Shown piece after piece: positions 6,357 through 64,000 of a DNA stretch of 64,000 nucleotides (positions are counted from its first letter, which is position 1; every line of letters starts with the position of its first letter). The notes below the pieces were generated by a model that was not told the origin of the DNA, did no database searches, and saw only the letters and a program-made list of their open reading frames with translations. The stretch spans positions 3,629-67,628 of the forward strand of contig NZ_MDSK01000005.1 in the NCBI RefSeq assembly GCF_002940205.1, written 5' to 3'. The stretch is from Xanthomonas arboricola pv. guizotiae (GTDB lineage: Bacteria; Pseudomonadota; Gammaproteobacteria; Xanthomonadales; Xanthomonadaceae). The position numbers were made by a program, and so were the translations under genes.

Positions 6357-8029
6357 ACGACACACGGCCCGACCGTCTGCGCGATGTGTTTCGCCGGCAT
6401 GCCTGGCGCCTGCTGCTGTCGGCGCTGTTGGTCCTTGTCACCATGCTGGCCGGCGTGGGCCTGCTCGGCGTGTCCGGCAGTTTCCTGACCGCCGCCGCCT
6501 TGGCCGGTGTCGCGGGCATGGGCAGCGGCTTCAATTTCTTTTCGCCCTCCGCCGGCATTCGCGCGCTGACCTTCGCGCGCATCGTTTCGCGTTATGGCGA
6601 AAAATTGATCGGCCACGACGCCACGCTGCGCATCGCCCGCGACCTGCGCGTGTGGTTCTTCCGCCGCGCGTTGCCGCTGGCGCCGGGCCGCCTGTCGGCC
6701 ACGCGCACCGGCGATCTGCTGGCGCGGTTGATGTCCGACATCGGCGAGGTCGATGGCGTGAGCGTGCGCGCGTTGGCGCCGTTGAGCGCATTGCTCGGCA
6801 TCTGGGTGGCCGGCGTGGTGGCAGCGGCGCTGATCTATCCGCCGGCCGGCGTGTTGCTGGTGGTGCTGGGCGTGGTCATCGGCGGCGTGGTGCCGTGGCA
6901 GGTGACGCGCGGCGGTGCGCAGCGCGAGCAGCTGCGCGCCATGCAACGCACCACCTTGCGCACGCAGGCGTTCGAGGGCCTGGAAGGTGCGGCCGATCTC
7001 GCTGCGGTGGATGCGCAAGGTGCCTGGCTGCATCAGGTCGATGCAACGGCGGCGGCAGTGGTCGATGGCGATCGCCAGCAACGCCGTCGCCTGATCGGCG
7101 GCAATCTGCTGCATGCGGTCTGCGGCGGTATCGGTCTGGCCGGCATGTTGTGGCTTGGGTTGAGCGCGGCAGAACGCGGATTGATTGCTGCGGAGATGGC
7201 GGCCGGGCTGGTGTTCCTGACCATGGCACTGCTGGAGGTCTGGGCCGGCGCCGGACTCGCCTTGCAGGCGCTGCAGAGCGCGCGCGTTGCGGCCAGGCGC
7301 CTGCAGTCCATCGTCGACCAGGCGCCGTCGGTCGACGATCCGTCGCAGCCAGTGGATGCGCCACGCAGCGGTACGCTGCGCCTGCGACAGGTCAGTTTTG
7401 CGTGGCCGGGCAGTGGACGTGCGCTGCTGCAGGCGCTCGATCTGAGCCTGGCGCCTGGCGAGCGCATCGCCATCAGCGGCGACAGCGGCAGCGGCAAGAG
7501 CAGCTTGTCCGCAGTGCTGTTGCGGCTGTGGGACCCGCAGGCCGGGCAGGTGACCTACGCCGATATCGACCTGCGCCATTTCGCGCAGGCGCAATGGCAT
7601 CAACGCATCGCCTGGCTGCCGCAGAATGCCCCGGTGTTTGCCGGCACGGTGCGCGACAACCTGCGCATCGGCGATGCCGGCGCGAGTGATGCAGCGATGT
7701 GGAACGCGCTGGACCAGGTGCGTCTGCGCGCCTGGGCCACCGCGCAGAACGGGCTGGACACCTGGGTCGGCGAAAACGGCGCCACGCTCTCGGCCGGCCA
7801 GGCGCGCCGGCTGGCGCTGGCGCGCGCCTTGCTGCGCGAGGCGCCGATCCTGCTGCTGGACGAACCCACCGACGGCCTGGATGTGGATACCGCGCACGCC
7901 TTGCTGCTGGATCTATCGGCCGCGCTGGGCGAGCGCAGCCTGGTGATGATCACCCACGACAGCGTGCCCGATGGCGTGGTGCAGCGACGTTATCGCCTGC
8001 GGGCCGGTGCGCTGGAGCCCTTGGCCTGA
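6353..8029 (+). CDS. cydC: Heterodimeric ABC transporter CydDC, subunit CydC
   Basis: A 558-residue partner of CydD. It starts with ATG overlapping the cydD stop (ATGA), so the two are translationally coupled. The N-terminal membrane domain ends near residue 320. The ATPase domain has Walker A GDSGSGKSS, signature LSAGQARRLALAR (an A in place of the first G), and Walker B ILLLDEPTDGLD. The variant signature motif suggests asymmetry between the two ATP sites, which is common in heterodimeric exporters. It works with CydD in periplasmic thiol export, supporting cytochrome bd (encoded next door) and probably cytochrome c maturation. Confidence 0.93.
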   Translation: MNDTRPDRLRDVFRRHAWRLLLSALLVLVTMLAGVGLLGVSGSFLTAAALAGVAGMGSGFNFFSPSAGIRALTFARIVSRYGEKLIGHDATLRIARDLRVWFFRRALPLAPGRLSATRTGDLLARLMSDIGEVDGVSVRALAPLSALLGIWVAGVVAAALIYPPAGVLLVVLGVVIGGVVPWQVTRGGAQREQLRAMQRTTLRTQAFEGLEGAADLAAVDAQGAWLHQVDATAAAVVDGDRQQRRRLIGGNLLHAVCGGIGLAGMLWLGLSAAERGLIAAEMAAGLVFLTMALLEVWAGAGLALQALQSARVAARRLQSIVDQAPSVDDPSQPVDAPRSGTLRLRQVSFAWPGSGRALLQALDLSLAPGERIAISGDSGSGKSSLSAVLLRLWDPQAGQVTYADIDLRHFAQAQWHQRIAWLPQNAPVFAGTVRDNLRIGDAGASDAAMWNALDQVRLRAWATAQNGLDTWVGENGATLSAGQARRLALARALLREAPILLLDEPTDGLDVDTAHALLLDLSAALGERSLVMITHDSVPDGVVQRRYRLRAGALEPLA

Positions 8030-57471: not shown

Positions 57472-59037
<1,566 letters not shown>

Positions 59038-59344
59038 TTTGGCATCTGGCACCGGCTGGCACCGAGTAGCACGAAAACACACCTAAGCCCGCGTAAATGC
59101 GGGCTTTTTTGTGATTTCGTTTAGCACTGGCTGGCAATCTTTGGCATCGCCAAGCACTACTTTTTCATGGCATGATGGATGGCATTGAGTGCTTCGATGC
59201 CATGACGCTCCGTCGATACCATGTAGCCATTTTTCTAGTGCTCATGGTATTGAAATGACGTAGTGCAATGATTTCATTGTGTTTTTACGCCAGGATTCGG
59301 CCTATTTTAAATCATGGTATTTGAGCCGAACTAGGGCGAAAATC
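59038..59344. other. Putative attL/integrase arm-site region (307 bp without a gene)
   Basis: Contains seven direct TGGCA motifs (from 59040, 59047, 59057, 59132, 59142, 59168 and 59180) and an inverse TGCCA at 59198, several extended as TTTGGCATC or CTGGCACC. Such clustering is what arm-type binding sites of a tyrosine integrase look like. A terminator at 59085-59106 lies among them. Which bases form the crossover core cannot be told without the right junction. Confidence 0.5.
59085..59110 (+). terminator. Rho-independent terminator of guaA
   Basis: Stem AAGCCCGC/GCGGGCTT around GTAAAT, followed by TTTT, 48 bp after the guaA stop. It would also insulate guaA from the element. Confidence 0.9.
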
Positions 59345-60547
59345 ATGTTGACCGATACCAAGCTGCGCAACCTCAAGCCGAGGGATAAGCTCTACAAGGA
59401 AAACGACCGTGACGGTCTCTATGTAGCCGTCACGCCCGCAGGGGCGATCTCATTCCGGTACAACTACTCGATCCACGGTCGGCAGGAGACCATCACCTTC
59501 GGCCGCTACGGTGTTGGGGGCATCACCCTGGCGGAAGCCCGCGAGCGGTTGGGCGAGGCCAAGAAGATGATCACGGCCGGGAAGTCGCCGGCGAAGGAGA
59601 AGGCTCGGGACAAGGCCCGTGTCAAGGACGCGGAGACGTTCGGGGCCTGGGCGGAAAAGTGGCTGCGTGGCTACCAGATGGCCGATTCCACCCGTGACAT
59701 GCGCCGCTCTGTCTACGAGCGCGAGCTGAAGCCGAAATTCGGCAATCAGAAGCTGGTGGAGATTACCCACGAGGACTTGCGCGCGCTGACCGATGCCATC
59801 GTGGAGCGCGGCGCTCCGGCAACCGCAGTGCATGTCCGCGAGGTGGTGTTACAGGTTTTTCGCTGGGCCATCGAGCGCGGCCAGAAGGTCGAGAACCCGG
59901 CAGAGCTGGTGCGCCCGACGAGCATCGCCAAGTTCGAGCCGCGCGACCGTGCGCTGACGCCCGACGAAATCGGCTTGATGTACCAGTACATGGAGCGCAT
60001 CGGCACGGCGCCATCCATCCGGGCGGCGGCCAAGCTGTTGCTGCTGACGATGGTGCGCAAGAGCGAGCTGACCAACGCGACCTGGAGCGAGATCAATTTC
60101 AGCGATGCGCTTTGGACGATCCCCAAGGAGCGGATGAAGCGACGCAATCCGCACCTGGTGTTTCTGTCCCGCCAGGCGCTGGACATTTTCATTGCCCTGA
60201 AAACCTTTGCCGGTGGGTCGGACTATGTATTGCCCTCACGGTATGACTCGGACTTGCCCATGAGCAGCGCCACACTCAACCAGGTGCTGACGCTGACGTA
60301 TCGGTTAGCGCAGAAGGAAGGGAAGTCGCTCGCCAAGTTCGGGCCACATGACTTGCGGCGAACGGCCAGCACGTTGCTGCACGAAGCTGGCTACAACACC
60401 GATTGGATCGAGAAGTGCCTTGCCCACGAACAGAAGGGCGTCAGGGCCGTCTACAACAAGGCAGAGTACCGCGAGCAGCGGACGGCGATGTTGCAGGACT
60501 GGGCGGACATGATCGACGAATGGACGCTCAAGCGGCCGAAGGCGTAA
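59345..60547 (+). CDS. Tyrosine integrase (P4-type, DUF4102 N-terminus)
   Basis: A 400-residue site-specific recombinase. An N-terminal DUF4102 arm-binding domain (MLTDTKLRNLKPRDKLYKEN) is followed by a SAM-like core-binding domain (about 97-180) and the catalytic domain with Arg238 (MVRKSEL), Lys265, His335-x-x-Arg338 (GPHDLRRTAS), His361 and Tyr370 (AVYNKAEY). The full pentad appears intact. It faces away from guaA and would insert or excise the element. The start at the ATG at 59345 is preferred over a codon 66 bp earlier. Confidence 0.95.
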   Translation: MLTDTKLRNLKPRDKLYKENDRDGLYVAVTPAGAISFRYNYSIHGRQETITFGRYGVGGITLAEARERLGEAKKMITAGKSPAKEKARDKARVKDAETFGAWAEKWLRGYQMADSTRDMRRSVYERELKPKFGNQKLVEITHEDLRALTDAIVERGAPATAVHVREVVLQVFRWAIERGQKVENPAELVRPTSIAKFEPRDRALTPDEIGLMYQYMERIGTAPSIRAAAKLLLLTMVRKSELTNATWSEINFSDALWTIPKERMKRRNPHLVFLSRQALDIFIALKTFAGGSDYVLPSRYDSDLPMSSATLNQVLTLTYRLAQKEGKSLAKFGPHDLRRTASTLLHEAGYNTDWIEKCLAHEQKGVRAVYNKAEYREQRTAMLQDWADMIDEWTLKRPKA

Positions 60548-60636
60548 GTCAGAGGAGGGCAGGTAGGCAGCGCCTCCAGAATAGCGACCATGGCCTCGGC
60601 TGTCATTGACACTTGAGGGGCGCGGCGTTTTAGCGG

Positions 60637-60882
60637 CTAAAAAGCGGTGGCTGCGACCGACGGGGTGAAGCCAGGCCGCATGGCCTGCGTGCCCGATGAC
60701 TTGCGCGCCTCGATCCATTCCTCGATTTCTACCAAGTCCCAGGCGACGTTTCGGCTGGTGAGTGCGATCCGGCGCGGGAACTCCCCGCGCTGCTCCATGT
60801 TGAAGATCGTGCGCTCAGACAGCGGGATCATCGCCAGCAGTTTCTTGCGATTGATGAGCGTCTTACTTGTCGTTGCCTGCAT
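60637..60882 (-). CDS. AlpA family excisionase-like regulator
   Basis: An 81-residue protein with the AlpA/MerR-like winged-helix: LINRKKLLAMIPLSERTIFN, MEQRGEFPRRIAL, NVAWDLVEIEEWIEARKSS. In P4-like and other islands such proteins bind near the int gene and regulate or direct excision. The ATG at 60882 has GAGG about 8 bp upstream; a GTG at 60903 would add seven residues. It converges with the integrase gene. Confidence 0.85.
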   Translation of the reverse strand: MQATTSKTLINRKKLLAMIPLSERTIFNMEQRGEFPRRIALTSRNVAWDLVEIEEWIEARKSSGTQAMRPGFTPSVAATAF

Positions 60883-60986
60883 CCCCTGGCCTCTTTCAGT
60901 CACTTGCGAACATGTGCCTGATAGTGCCCGTCAATGCGGATTGATTCGGCCTAATGATTGACCCTTTTGGTTGACACGAAAAGAAA

Positions 60987-62006
60987 TCAGCGGATGGGGC
61001 GCTTCTTCTTCAAGTGAAACATTGCGGGGATTGATGACAGCGCCTTCGATACCGCTTGGCGCTCGATGCCCAACCTTCGCGCAATCTCCGACTGATTGAG
61101 TCCAGACCACTGGAGCATCAAGATCTGCTTCCTCCGATCGGAGAGCTTCGAGTCCACCATCAGCCGCGCCTGGTTGCGCAGTTCCGCTTTGTCTGCCGGC
61201 TGCAACGTCTGGCGCATGACATAGTGGAAGAAGTAGCCGTCAACGAGTTGATCGCCCGATTTCACTTGCGGCGTTGCCGGCTTCGCGCATTGCTGGCTGA
61301 GCTTGGCCAGCTCAAGTTCAAACTGCGCGAGTGATCGCTTCGCCTGCCTGTATGCGGGGTTCCATTCGCCATTCGTTAGCTTGGGTCGATGCCCTTCGCA
61401 ATACTGGTGACTAAGTTCAAGTTTCTTGCGATTCTCAAGCTCCGCATCATTGACCTGTTGCTCCGCAACCTTGGCCATGAACGCGGAAAACTCCGTCAGC
61501 TCTCCGCAGAAGTCGCAGAAGCCGTGTTTCCGTTGCGCATTGAGACTGACGCCCTGAGCGGGGGAAGACGTTTGAGGGCGTTTGCTGGCACAGTAGCAAA
61601 CCAGTTCGATCAAGGCTTCGATGGTCGCGGTAAAGCGATGATCCCTTGGTGTCTGTCGGTCTTCCGTTTTGATGAACTGGCGTAGCAACTGGCGCTGCAC
61701 GCGAACCATCGCGTCAAGTCCTACCAGTCCAATGATCGCGCTGAAGCTCACACCTGTGCCGGCGCCGGGAACGTAGCCCGAGTAGCGTACTGGAAGGGTT
61801 GCCATGTAGGCGGCTACAGCAGGATCGATCACTTCCTGGATCAGTCGCCCGATAGGGTAGCGTCGCGAAGACGTGGAGTATGGCTTCCAACGTTCGCGGA
61901 AATCTTTGATGGACTGAGAAACGGTGGGGTCGCAGCCTTCCCAGATGGGAATGTAGTAACGACCAAGGCGCTTCTTTGCGTGCTCTTCGTTTTCCATGTC
62001 AACCAT
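60987..62006 (-). CDS. Unrecognised DNA-binding protein of the element
   Basis: A 339-residue protein I could not assign. Visible features: a possible zinc site with Cys164-x-x-Cys167 (HGFCDFCGELTEF) and Cys203-x-x-His206 (HQYCEGHRP), a charged helical stretch between and after them, and a C-terminal helix-turn-helix (about 291-326; LQWSGLNQSEIARRLGIERQ) like sigma-70 region 4 or LuxR-type. The GAGTGVSFSA segment near residue 81 is glycine-rich. It may be a regulator of the element. The start is uncertain among ATG 62006, ATG 61997 and TTG 62015. Confidence 0.7.
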   Translation of the reverse strand: MVDMENEEHAKKRLGRYYIPIWEGCDPTVSQSIKDFRERWKPYSTSSRRYPIGRLIQEVIDPAVAAYMATLPVRYSGYVPGAGTGVSFSAIIGLVGLDAMVRVQRQLLRQFIKTEDRQTPRDHRFTATIEALIELVCYCASKRPQTSSPAQGVSLNAQRKHGFCDFCGELTEFSAFMAKVAEQQVNDAELENRKKLELSHQYCEGHRPKLTNGEWNPAYRQAKRSLAQFELELAKLSQQCAKPATPQVKSGDQLVDGYFFHYVMRQTLQPADKAELRNQARLMVDSKLSDRRKQILMLQWSGLNQSEIARRLGIERQAVSKALSSIPAMFHLKKKRPIR

Positions 62007-62087
62007 TATTGCCAACTAATAAGCTGCTATCAAGCCTGACGCTGCTTAACCTTCGTTGCAATTCAGTTGATAACGGAGGTTTACGCA

Positions 62088-62321
62088 ATGACGATGGAAG
62101 ACACGCTGCTGCAACGCTTCGGCCCGCTGCTGAGCATCGCGCAGCTCGCCACTGTCCTGGATCGTTCGCCTGATGGGTTGCGGATCAGCTTGCGAGCGAC
62201 GAACGAATGGACGCAGCGGATCAACAAGGCCCGCTTGAAGATCGGCCGGAGGGTCTACTTCCGAACCTCGCAGATCGCCGAGGTGTTGAGTGACGAGTCC
62301 CTGTACGGAACGGGGAACTGA
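62088..62321 (+). CDS. Small helix-turn-helix-like protein preceding repA
   Basis: A 77-residue protein (MTMEDTLLQRFGPLLSIAQL...) with a strong ribosome-binding site (GGAGG 8 bp before ATG). The central part (IAQLATVLDRSPDGLRISLR) resembles the DNA-binding helices of small plasmid and island regulators; the tail (GRRVYFRTSQIAEVLSDE) is typical of excisionase/AlpA-like wings. Exact family unknown. It ends 3 bp before repA and so is probably co-expressed with it, perhaps regulating replication. Confidence 0.75.
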   Translation: MTMEDTLLQRFGPLLSIAQLATVLDRSPDGLRISLRATNEWTQRINKARLKIGRRVYFRTSQIAEVLSDESLYGTGN

Positions 62322-62324
62322 GGA

Positions 62325-63203
62325 ATGGCGATTGATGTACTGGCGGCGTTCGAGCACGAACCGCCGGTACTGGACTTCATATGGCCCGGCTTCCTTGCGG
62401 GCACTGTCGGCGCGCTCGTCGCTCCAGGAGCCACGGGTAAGAGCTTCTGGGCGCTGGAAGCAGCCATGAGCATCGCATGCAGCGTCGCGGGTGGCGACCT
62501 CGTTGGCCTAGCTCCCGCGCACACCGGGCGCGTGGTCTATTTGGCCGGGGAAGACCCTCCGCCGGCGCTGGTGCGGCGCATTCATGCCATCGGCCAGCAC
62601 CTCGGGCACGCCGCCCGCCAGGCCATCGCAGAGAACCTCGCGCTTGAGCCGATCATGGGCAAACGCCTGAACGTCATGGACGATGCCCACTTGCGCCGCG
62701 TCATCGAGTACAGCGCCGGGGCGCGGCTGATCGTGCTGGACACCCTGAGCCGCATTCACGCCCTCGATGAGAACAGCAACGGCAACATGGCCCACCTCGT
62801 GGCCGTGCTGGAGCACGTTGCGGCCACCACGGGCGCATCCGTGCTCTACCTGCACCACGTCAGCAAAGGCAGCGCCCGCGAAGGGCAGACCGACCAGCAG
62901 CAGGCAGCACGTGGCGCGTCCGCGCTGATCGACAACGCCAGGTGGTGCGGTTACGTCGCCCGGATGACCGAGGACGAAGCAAAGCGCCTCAGCGACCGCG
63001 CCCATGACCGGCAGCCAATCGGCAATGAGCGCCGCAGCTACTTCGTGCGTTTCGGCGTCAGCAAGCAGAACTACGACGCCACGCCGCTTGATCGCTGGTA
63101 CATGCGACATGCGGGCGGCGTTCTGGTGCCGGTGGAGCTGCACGAGGTCAGCAGGAATGAGGAGAAGGGGCGCGATGGCCGGAGGCGAGGCGATGGCTTT
63201 TGA
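62325..63203 (+). CDS. repA: IncQ-type RepA replicative helicase
   Basis: A 292-residue ring-helicase of the RSF1010 RepA/DnaB-RecA fold. Walker A APGATGKS (33-40), Walker B LIVLDTL (135-141), and the segment VLYLHHVSKG (HH at 177-178), QQQAARGASALIDNARW and RFGVSKQNYDATPLDRW track RSF1010 RepA along its whole length as I remember it. In IncQ plasmids RepA is a 5'-3' helicase used with RepC and a RepB primase. Here it lies on a chromosomal element. It follows the small gene by 3 bp. Confidence 0.9.
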   Translation: MAIDVLAAFEHEPPVLDFIWPGFLAGTVGALVAPGATGKSFWALEAAMSIACSVAGGDLVGLAPAHTGRVVYLAGEDPPPALVRRIHAIGQHLGHAARQAIAENLALEPIMGKRLNVMDDAHLRRVIEYSAGARLIVLDTLSRIHALDENSNGNMAHLVAVLEHVAATTGASVLYLHHVSKGSAREGQTDQQQAARGASALIDNARWCGYVARMTEDEAKRLSDRAHDRQPIGNERRSYFVRFGVSKQNYDATPLDRWYMRHAGGVLVPVELHEVSRNEEKGRDGRRRGDGF

Positions 63204-64000
63204 CCTCACCCATGCCAGGCACGATCCGATGCACTGCTTGGTTCCCGGTCTGTTCCGCAGCCTCAAGCGCGGCGAACGGAAGAAGCTCAAGCTCGATGTG
63301 ACGTACCACTACGCCGAGAATGAGCAAGCACGGTTCGTCGGCTTCGAGCCTCTTGGCGCTGATGACATGCGGCTTCTGCAAGGTCTTGTGGCTCTTGGCG
63401 GGCCGAAGGGCATCATCCTGACGCCAGAGCCATCAGCGGATTTGCCGAAGCAGCTCCGTCTATTTCTTGAGCCGAAGTTCGATGCGGCAGGGCAGGATGC
63501 GCTTGTCGTGCGCGAGAGCATGACCAGTCTGCTAGGCGAAATCGGCTTGACCGATGGCGGCGACAACATCAGGGCGATCAAGGCGTGTTTGCTGCGCATG
63601 ACAAACGTGACAGTGATGGTCACCAAGGGGATCAGGCACAGATCTTTTCACCTGATGAGCCATGCCTTCGATGAGGGGGATGGACGGCTATTCGTGGCGT
63701 TAAATCCTCAGATTACGGAGGCGATTCTTGGGAGGCGACCGTATACCCGCATCGACATGGCCGAGGTACGGGCGTTACAAACCGACCCGGCCCGCTTGAT
63801 TCACCAGCGTCTATGCGGCTGGATCGACCCGGGCAAAGCCGGACGTGTGGAACTGGATACCCTTTCTGGTTACGTCTGGCCGGACGAGGCGAACGCCGAG
63901 GCCATGAAGAAGCGCCGCCAGAAGGTTCGCAAGGCTCTGGCCGAGCTTGCCGCCGTGGGCTGGAAGGTAAGCGAGTATGCGGTAGGGAAGTGGGAAATCG
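63193..64000 (+). CDS. repC: IncQ-type RepC replication initiator (3' end off window)
   Basis: About 269 residues visible without a stop. Motifs shared with RSF1010 RepC include the start (RHDPMHCLVPGLFRSLKRGE), PLGADDMRLLQGLVAL, RLIHQRLCGWIDPGK and SGYVWPDEANAEAMKKRR. RepC binds origin iterons to begin replication. RSF1010 RepC is about 283 residues, so only the last few residues are missing. The ATG at 63193 has GGAGG 7 bp upstream and overlaps repA by 11 bp; an ATG at 63175 is also in frame. No iteron array was found in this window. Confidence 0.9.
   Translation, partial: MAFDLTHARHDPMHCLVPGLFRSLKRGERKKLKLDVTYHYAENEQARFVGFEPLGADDMRLLQGLVALGGPKGIILTPEPSADLPKQLRLFLEPKFDAAGQDALVVRESMTSLLGEIGLTDGGDNIRAIKACLLRMTNVTVMVTKGIRHRSFHLMSHAFDEGDGRLFVALNPQITEAILGRRPYTRIDMAEVRALQTDPARLIHQRLCGWIDPGKAGRVELDTLSGYVWPDEANAEAMKKRRQKVRKALAELAAVGWKVSEYAVGKWEI

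What the first reader, a model, noticed from the sequence alone, without database searches (positions are those of the whole stretch)
59038..64000. IncQ-type repA-repC carried on a chromosomal guaA-integrated element
Two adjacent proteins match RSF1010 RepA and RepC along nearly their full length, yet the genes sit beside a tyrosine integrase behind guaA in the chromosome. IncQ replication modules are known from small mobilisable plasmids; on an integrative element they suggest an excised, autonomously replicating circle. No RepB primase or mob gene lies in view, so the replicon is incomplete here or continues outside.
Basis: partly seen in the sequence, partly recalled or inferred. Interest (0 to 1): 0.78.

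Follow-up and report, generated by a model that had tools for sequence, protein, structure and literature searches.

The report
IncQ-type guaA island with helper-plasmid sites
A 14-kb mobile DNA island sits at the end of the guaA gene; it carries the replication genes and origin of a small plasmid but no primase, relaxase or complete transfer machinery, and it bears DNA sites of a different conjugative plasmid family (IncP-1), which suggests that it lives as a satellite of such plasmids.

Summary
RepA matches solved RSF1010 RepA (E 2e-72) and RepC the Pfam RepC family (E 6e-150), beside a tyrosine integrase behind guaA. The contig continues: the island spans 14,149 bp between GAGTGGGAGTGA repeats. 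It is a GIsul2-type integrative mobilisable element; that family, with RepA/RepC and guaA, is in print (PMC5704250, PMC9376610). Up to the right repeat there are a 22-bp iteron array across the repC end (IncQ-type oriV), an IncP oriT, TraJ, a TraK-like protein, TrbJ/K/L and a restriction-modification cargo, but no RepB primase and no relaxase. Not found in print in my searches: three exact IncP-1 TrfA iterons and four exact KorB operators, two pairs fused as iteron-7 bp-operator. Of 52 guaA islands (14 lineages) 46 have an iteron and 51 a KorB site; however, in 32 the KorB site lies only inside trbJ, where IncP plasmids have it too. Control motifs: 0. Best reading: an IncP-1 satellite that transfers with IncP proteins and replicates from an IncQ-type origin lacking its primase. 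That TrfA and KorB act on it is untested.

The parts
57472..59037 (+). guaA, host gene whose 3' end is the attachment site (start codon inferred)
   Evidence: Pfam GATase and GMP_synt_C
59019..59037 (+). attL (19-bp near-repeat GACGATCGAGTGGGAGTGA); the second copy stands at L007:14797-14815, window-equivalent 73168-73186
   Evidence: direct repeat D13, spacing 14149; 15-bp core exact twice, 0 of 200 shuffles reach two
59345..60547 (+). tyrosine integrase of the island
   Evidence: PF00589 E 1e-22, PF13356 E 6e-19; 92% identical to the GIsul2 integrase (L019)
60607..60641 (+). composite site: TrfA iteron 60607-60621, 7 bp, KorB operator 60629-60641, between the 3' ends of int and alpA (overlaps the last codons of alpA)
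60637..60903 (-). AlpA-type protein, probable excisionase
   Evidence: PF05930 E 1.6e-12; PHROG excisionase 5e-11
60987..62015 (-). 342-aa protein with C-terminal HTH, probable regulator; homologues in many related islands
   Evidence: weak sigma-70 region 4 matches below cut-off; 16-sequence alignment; model all-helical, mean pLDDT 78, pTM 0.47
62088..62321 (+). small HTH_17-like protein, 4 bp upstream of repA; GIsul2 has alpA at this place (start codon inferred)
   Evidence: PF12728 E 0.002, below cut-off; L019 annotation
62325..63203 (+). repA, IncQ-type helicase
   Evidence: 1g8y E 2.1e-72
63193..64000 (+). repC, IncQ-type initiator (ends at window-equivalent 64062)
   Evidence: PF06504 E 5.6e-150

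Best explanation
The region is the left part of a 14.15-kb integrative mobilisable element of the GIsul2 type. Shown by sequence: Int and AlpA with guaA 3'-end att repeats; IncQ-type RepA and RepC with a 22-bp iteron array across the repC end; an IncP-type oriT with TraJ; TrbJ, TrbK, TrbL; no relaxase and no primase found; three TrfA iterons and four KorB operators. Inferred: Int and AlpA excise a circle. An IncP-1 plasmid in the same cell supplies relaxase, coupling protein and most of the pilus; the island gives its oriT, TraJ and its own TrbJ/K/L and is transferred. RepA-RepC at the iterons keep the circle replicating until it integrates again, with priming by host or helper because RepB is missing. 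The KorB and TrfA sites tie the island to the presence of an IncP-1 helper. This helper-sensing step is the newest and least certain part (about 0.4 by itself); the IncP-dependent transfer alone I would put near 0.85.
For: GIsul2-like gene order and 76.6% RepC identity. Att repeats. oriT: Rfam traJ-II 113.9 bits, 86% over 144 bp to the traJ-traK intergenic region of IncP-1 plasmid pB8. TraJ, TrbJ, TrbK, TrbL over NCBIfam cut-offs. In L020 (pLH3.4) traI lies between traJ and trbJ; here it is missing. Iterons: 3, KorB: 4, with 0 of 200 shuffles reaching these numbers. 22-bp period at the repC end in 52 of 52 guaA islands. Iteron 46 of 52, KorB 51 of 52, oriT 51 of 52; scrambled motifs 0 and upstream chromosome 0. 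KorB sites outside trbJ in 19 of 52 islands, 11 of 14 lineages. dN/dS 0.03-0.25 over 12 genes, frame-broken L026 int and repA left out. Relatives excise and transfer by experiment (PMC9376610, PMC7775301).
Against: No helper is seen in this genome: KorB_C, TrfA and TraI absent (the last without a positive control), and 0 of 33 other carrier genomes have KorB_C (no control rang in that call). In 32 of 52 islands, among them all 28 of the GIsul2 lineage, the only KorB site lies inside trbJ, where pB8 and pLH3.4 also have one, so inheritance suffices there. Iterons are missing within one mismatch from L029, L072 and L084; L084 has no KorB site or oriT either. No binding, excision or copy-number data exist for this island.
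Confidence: 0.62

Rival explanations
1. A relaxase-less remnant: an IncP-type island that lost traI; oriT, KorB sites and TrfA iterons are relics, and at most Int still works.
For: traI is missing between traJ and trbJ; 4 of 52 related islands still have a TraI hit; no helper in the genome; the KorB site inside trbJ is shared with IncP plasmids.
Against: All genes tested are under purifying selection. 48 of 52 islands in many genera lack a TraI hit. In 11 aligned islands the second iteron is 14 of 15 invariant while its 30-bp flanks are 17% and 20% invariant; the first iteron and KorB stand out less (flanks 47-67%, mean 59%). The iteron-KorB composite is not in pB8. A relaxase-less relative transferred to E. 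coli in experiment (PMC7775301; its annotated relaxase genes belong to repeats with IS91 and floR).
Confidence: 0.2
2. A helper-independent integrated plasmid: RepA-RepC and oriV replicate the excised circle by themselves and host DnaG primes; IncP genes serve only transfer or exclusion.
For: Intact repA and repC, 22-bp iterons at the repC end as in pTC-F14 and an IncQ1 plasmid, IncQ1 oriV similarity in 44 of 52 guaA islands.
Against: RepB primase, which the free IncQ plasmids pTC-F14 and L109 encode, is not found in any of the 52 guaA islands by tblastn; the IncQ1 ssi part of the origin is not matched in them. It leaves the iterons near oriV unexplained.
Confidence: 0.15
3. A self-transmissible ICE.
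For: TraJ and TrbJ/K/L present; PMC7775301 calls a close relative an ICE.
Against: Between the att repeats no relaxase, coupling protein or VirB4-type ATPase was seen among the ORFs scanned.
Confidence: 0.02
4. Plasmid misassembly.
For: 160-contig draft.
Against: guaA precedes repC in 55 of 81 loci from many genera, one on a 4.27-Mb contig (G018).
Confidence: 0.01

Closest known systems
GIsul2 (and ICERspD18B of Rheinheimera sp. D18, locus L058)
   Same: guaA 3' end with GAGTGGGA core, 92% integrase identity, AlpA, IncQ-type RepA and RepC, 22-bp iterons, IncP-type oriT, TrbJ/K/L, ptaRNA1 toxin, no relaxase
   Different: cargo is restriction-modification, not ars and CR2-sul2; RepA only 45% identical; TraJ, TraK-like gene, 342-aa regulator and two iteron-KorB composites are added
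IncP islands (Burkholderia glumae, Brucella suis; PMC5704250 passages)
   Same: TraJ, TraK-like, TrbJ, TrbL, guaA site
   Different: those encode their own MobP relaxase; here none was found
Mobilisable IncP-like plasmids such as pLH3.4 of Xanthomonas perforans
   Same: traJ to ptaRNA1 block about 92% identical in DNA
   Different: free plasmids with TraI and other replication genes
IncQ plasmids (RSF1010 type, pTC-F14)
   Same: RepA, RepC, 22-bp iterons, part of oriV
   Different: no RepB primase, no MobA; integrated in the chromosome
SGI1 and IncC plasmids
   Same: works alike: relaxase-less island that carries a few replacement pilus subunits of its helper and depends on it (PMC5704250 passages)
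   Different: unrelated genes, other site and other helper; not a member

Membership tests
GIsul2-type IME | integration at the guaA 3' end with GAGTGGGA core | tested here: met
   core as in PMC9376610
GIsul2-type IME | integrase, AlpA, RepA, RepC, TrbJ, TrbK, TrbL, ptaRNA1 toxin in this order | tested here: met
   alpA lies reversed next to int here and a small HTH gene takes its place before repA
GIsul2-type IME | no relaxase of its own | tested here: met
GIsul2-type IME | ars operon and CR2-sul2 cargo | tested here: not met
   methylase and EcoO109I-like endonuclease instead; cargo is not held to define the backbone, so I call this a variant
GIsul2-type IME | mobilisation by an IncP plasmid | not testable with these tools
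   needs mating experiments
IncQ replicon | RepA and RepC | tested here: met
IncQ replicon | iterons of oriV | tested here: met
   22-bp array at the repC end, as in pTC-F14 and L109
IncQ replicon | RepB primase | tested here: not met
IncQ replicon | autonomous replication | not testable with these tools
   needs a mini-replicon test
IncP island with relaxase | MobP relaxase TraI | tested here: not met
IncP-1 satellite (works like SGI1) | helper-plasmid binding sites and oriT in cis | tested here: met
   as sequence matches only
IncP-1 satellite (works like SGI1) | response to the helper | not testable with these tools
   needs binding and excision assays

The most novel reading that the evidence does not exclude
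The guaA islands with IncQ-type repAC are dedicated satellites of IncP-1 plasmids that use the helper's replication and partition proteins as well as its transfer system. TrfA bound at iterons next to the IncQ-type oriV would bring host helicase and primase to the origin and so replace the lost RepB; KorB bound at its operators would silence the integrated island and partition the excised circle. The iteron-7 bp-KorB composite would be the helper-sensing element. This would be a hybrid origin: an IncQ opening module served by an IncP-1 initiator.
Probability: 0.22. Interest if true: 0.82.

Novelty: new variant of a known kind. Interest (0 to 1): 0.53.

Why it matters
GIsul2-type islands spread resistance and arsenic genes, and how they find and use a helper is not settled; PMC5704250 only proposes IncP plasmids from TrbJ/K/L similarity. 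An IncP oriT, exact TrfA iterons and KorB operators in most such islands point to the same helper family at further steps and can be tested with purified proteins. The regular absence of RepB from an IncQ-type replicon poses a clear question: who primes this origin?

Tried and rejected
ICE: rejected, no relaxase, coupling protein or T4SS ATPase among the ORFs between the att repeats. Misassembly: rejected. An AT-rich hairpin shared by islands, pTC-F14 and IncQ1 was first taken for the ssi primase site; the layout in PMC4434180 (hairpin, GTG downstream) fits another part of the IncQ1 origin, so the claim was dropped. The 342-aa protein was considered as substitute primase: only HTH matches and an all-helical model of modest confidence (mean pLDDT 78, pTM 0.47), so a primase fold is unlikely; the fold search was not run because the machine was busy. 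RepB hit in L072: it is the LPD7 part of the relaxase. RepB_primase-like domains elsewhere in 2 of 22 genomes were not followed. No right att was found for the neighbouring second island. Rows dropped: of 55 guaA islands three with under 1.5 kb behind repC (L067, L096, L100) are not in the 52; 28 of the 52 are one GIsul2 lineage, hence the lineage counts. Outside the 55 are 6 loci with int but no guaA, 6 with trb but neither guaA nor int, and 14 with none of these. My note says the composite is in 13 loci; it is 14.

Papers. PMC9376610: discussion section and passages. PMC5704250, PMC7775301, PMC9499019, PMC4434180, PMC4081077, PMC4820964, PMC11790492, PMC9373382: passages (with the start of the abstract in listings). 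All others: search listing only. Harmer et al. 2017 (pIP40a, the main GIsul2 description) was not read. That the TrfA and KorB sites are not in print rests on searches of the open library only.
Full report
What is there. The window is C5:3629-67628 of a 4.93-Mb genome in 160 contigs. Behind guaA lie an integrase, a reversed alpA, a reversed gene for a 342-aa HTH protein, then a small HTH gene, repA and repC in one direction. RepA and RepC are IncQ-type. I took the contig past the window (window position = L007 position + 58371).

The whole island. A 19-bp near-repeat of the guaA end stands 14,149 bp further on (D13; 15-bp core exact in both, 0 of 200 shuffles reach two). Between them, past the window: a 22-bp array of 2.8 copies across the repC end (L007:5641-5702); a TraK-like gene (6357-6635; DUF5338, which also matches the annotated TraK of pLH3.4); an IncP oriT region (6828-6931, Rfam traJ-II, 113.9 bits; 86% over 144 bp to the traJ-traK intergenic region of IncP-1 plasmid pB8); TraJ, TrbJ, TrbK, TrbL over NCBIfam cut-offs; a ptaRNA1 toxin gene with its antisense RNA; a repressor-like gene; a C5 methylase and an EcoO109I-like endonuclease (E 5e-8) in DNA of about 49-53% GC. 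No relaxase, coupling protein, T4SS ATPase or primase was seen. In plasmid pLH3.4 traI lies between traJ and trbJ; here it is missing, while the DNA around it is about 92% identical to such plasmids.

Family. RepC is 76.6% identical to that of GIsul2 and the order int, repA, repC, trbJ, trbK, trbL, ptaRNA1 is the same. With L007, L021 and L022 these make 81. In 55 guaA precedes repC; 52 of these have at least 1.5 kb behind repC and fall into 14 lineages at 95% DNA identity around repC, 28 of them in the GIsul2 lineage. A TraI hit is seen in 4 of the 52 (L029, L032, L035 in pieces, L072). Relatives move by experiment: GIsul2 excises and integrates (PMC9376610), and ICERspD18B of Rheinheimera sp. 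D18 (L058) also transferred to E. coli (PMC7775301). In the congeners examined by RepC, 6 of 35 genomes had a match.

IncQ origin without primase. In 52 of 52 guaA islands the best repeat period at the repC end is 22 bp, with 29-40 of 40 positions matching against a background 95th percentile of 21-29 in the same loci. pTC-F14 (4.9 copies), an IncQ1 plasmid (3.5) and GIsul2 (2.9) have 22-bp arrays too. Part of the IncQ1 origin beyond the array matches 44 of 52 islands; the ssi part is not matched in them. The RepB primase domain gives tblastn hits only in pTC-F14, L081, L082, L083 and L102, and another MobA C-terminus only in L069, L074, L077 and L078; none is a guaA island. PF16793 is not found in the own genome; it is in 2 of the 22 genomes searched. 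tblastn would miss a very distant primase.

Helper sites. The RK2 TrfA iteron is TGACA(G/C)(A/T)TGAGGGGC (PMC9499019, passage). The island has three exact copies (L007:2236, 5916 reversed, 6140; 0 of 200 shuffles reach three) and four exact KorB operators (2258, 5896, 7334, 7611; 0 of 200 shuffles reach four). The operator pattern was recalled; the operator DNA used in PMC11790492 (passage) holds it. Positive control: pB8 has six iterons and eleven KorB sites. Among the 52 guaA islands: iteron 46 (11 of 14 lineages; 49 with one mismatch), KorB 51 (13 of 14), oriT 51 (13 of 14). None of the 62 iterons lies in a recognised gene. KorB needs care: 43 sites lie inside trbJ, where pB8 and pLH3.4 also have one, and 38 lie outside; 19 islands in 11 lineages have a site outside trbJ, 32 islands (three lineages, with all 28 GIsul2-lineage islands) only the one inside. 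Among 14 loci with neither guaA, int nor trb genes: iteron 0, KorB 1 (L090, a cut contig of an island lineage), oriT 2 (L071, L082); four of these 14 end within 500 bp behind repC, so they are a weak control, and L103, which has the 342-aa regulator, shows no site in its 1.8 kb. Reversed or scrambled motifs: 0 in the same 385,174 bases; chromosome upstream of guaA, 274,612 bases: no iteron, no KorB site.

The composite. An iteron followed after 7-9 bp by a KorB operator occurs 20 times in 14 of 84 loci, 7 lineages, 10 of the 52 guaA islands, at the int/alpA junction or behind oriV; pB8 has none within 30 bp. Of 369 genomes drawn from the class only the own genome has it; that sample may hold few such islands. 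In 11 aligned islands the iterons are 14 of 15 and the KorB site 12 of 13 invariant; the flanks of the second iteron are 17% and 20% invariant, those of the first iteron and KorB 47-67%, the mean is 59%. So the footprint is clear for one iteron and modest for the other sites.

Reading. oriT and TrbJ/K/L without relaxase fit an IncP-dependent element, as PMC5704250 proposes for GIsul2 by analogy with SGI1. The TrfA and KorB sites add further points of contact. KorB is a sliding clamp that silences genes at a distance (PMC11790492, start of abstract and passages), so sites away from promoters are no contradiction; it also serves partition in RK2 and TrfA recruits host helicase (both recalled). 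A circle without RepB could borrow priming from the helper. This last step is a proposal. A 93-bp stretch between the regulator and the rep operon recurs before the TraK-like gene (72%, D3), which suggests common control of replication and transfer.

Against. No helper is seen in this genome (KorB_C, TrfA, TraI) nor KorB_C in 33 other carriers (no control rang there). Among 35 congeners KorB_C is in 2 (G010, G023) and TrfA in 4 (3 over cut-off): strong in G023, weak in the island carriers G018 (44 bits) and G029 (22 bits, below cut-off). L029, L072 and L084 have no iteron within one mismatch, L084 neither KorB nor oriT. The sites could be relics.

Verdict. The TrfA iterons and composites and the regular lack of the primase were not found in print in my searches (open library only).

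Noticed in passing
contig C5 about 76,800-99,820 (L007:14797 to L008:17822), right of the island: A second guaA-side insertion with its own integrase (about 65-67% DNA identity to the first), AbiEi/AbiEii, IS remnants and a Wadjet type III set (JetB weak, JetC, JetD); no right att was found. A system of the plasmid-cleaving Wadjet kind (recalled) next to an element that may circularise is curious.
   Followed up: partly
L007:12035-14492 (outside the window): Restriction-modification pair of low GC in the slot where GIsul2 carries ars and sul2.
   Followed up: partly
window 61993-62085 and L007:6261-6353: The intergenic stretch between the 342-aa regulator and the rep operon recurs before the TraK-like gene (93 nt, 72%).
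   Followed up: partly
L007:5946-5979; similar palindromes in L019, L072, L076, L086: A 34-nt perfect palindrome lies behind the oriV iterons; other islands have palindromes of similar length there, partly of different sequence. Role unknown.
   Followed up: no
window 62325-63203 against 63193-64062: repA and repC have different histories: RepA is 76% identical to pTC-F14 but 45% to GIsul2, RepC 57% and 76%.
   Followed up: no
L118 and L121 (G021, G019): Two congeners have a DNA stretch 87% identical to the guaA-integrase region behind guaA although no RepC was found in them, so this integrase also serves other cargo.
   Followed up: no
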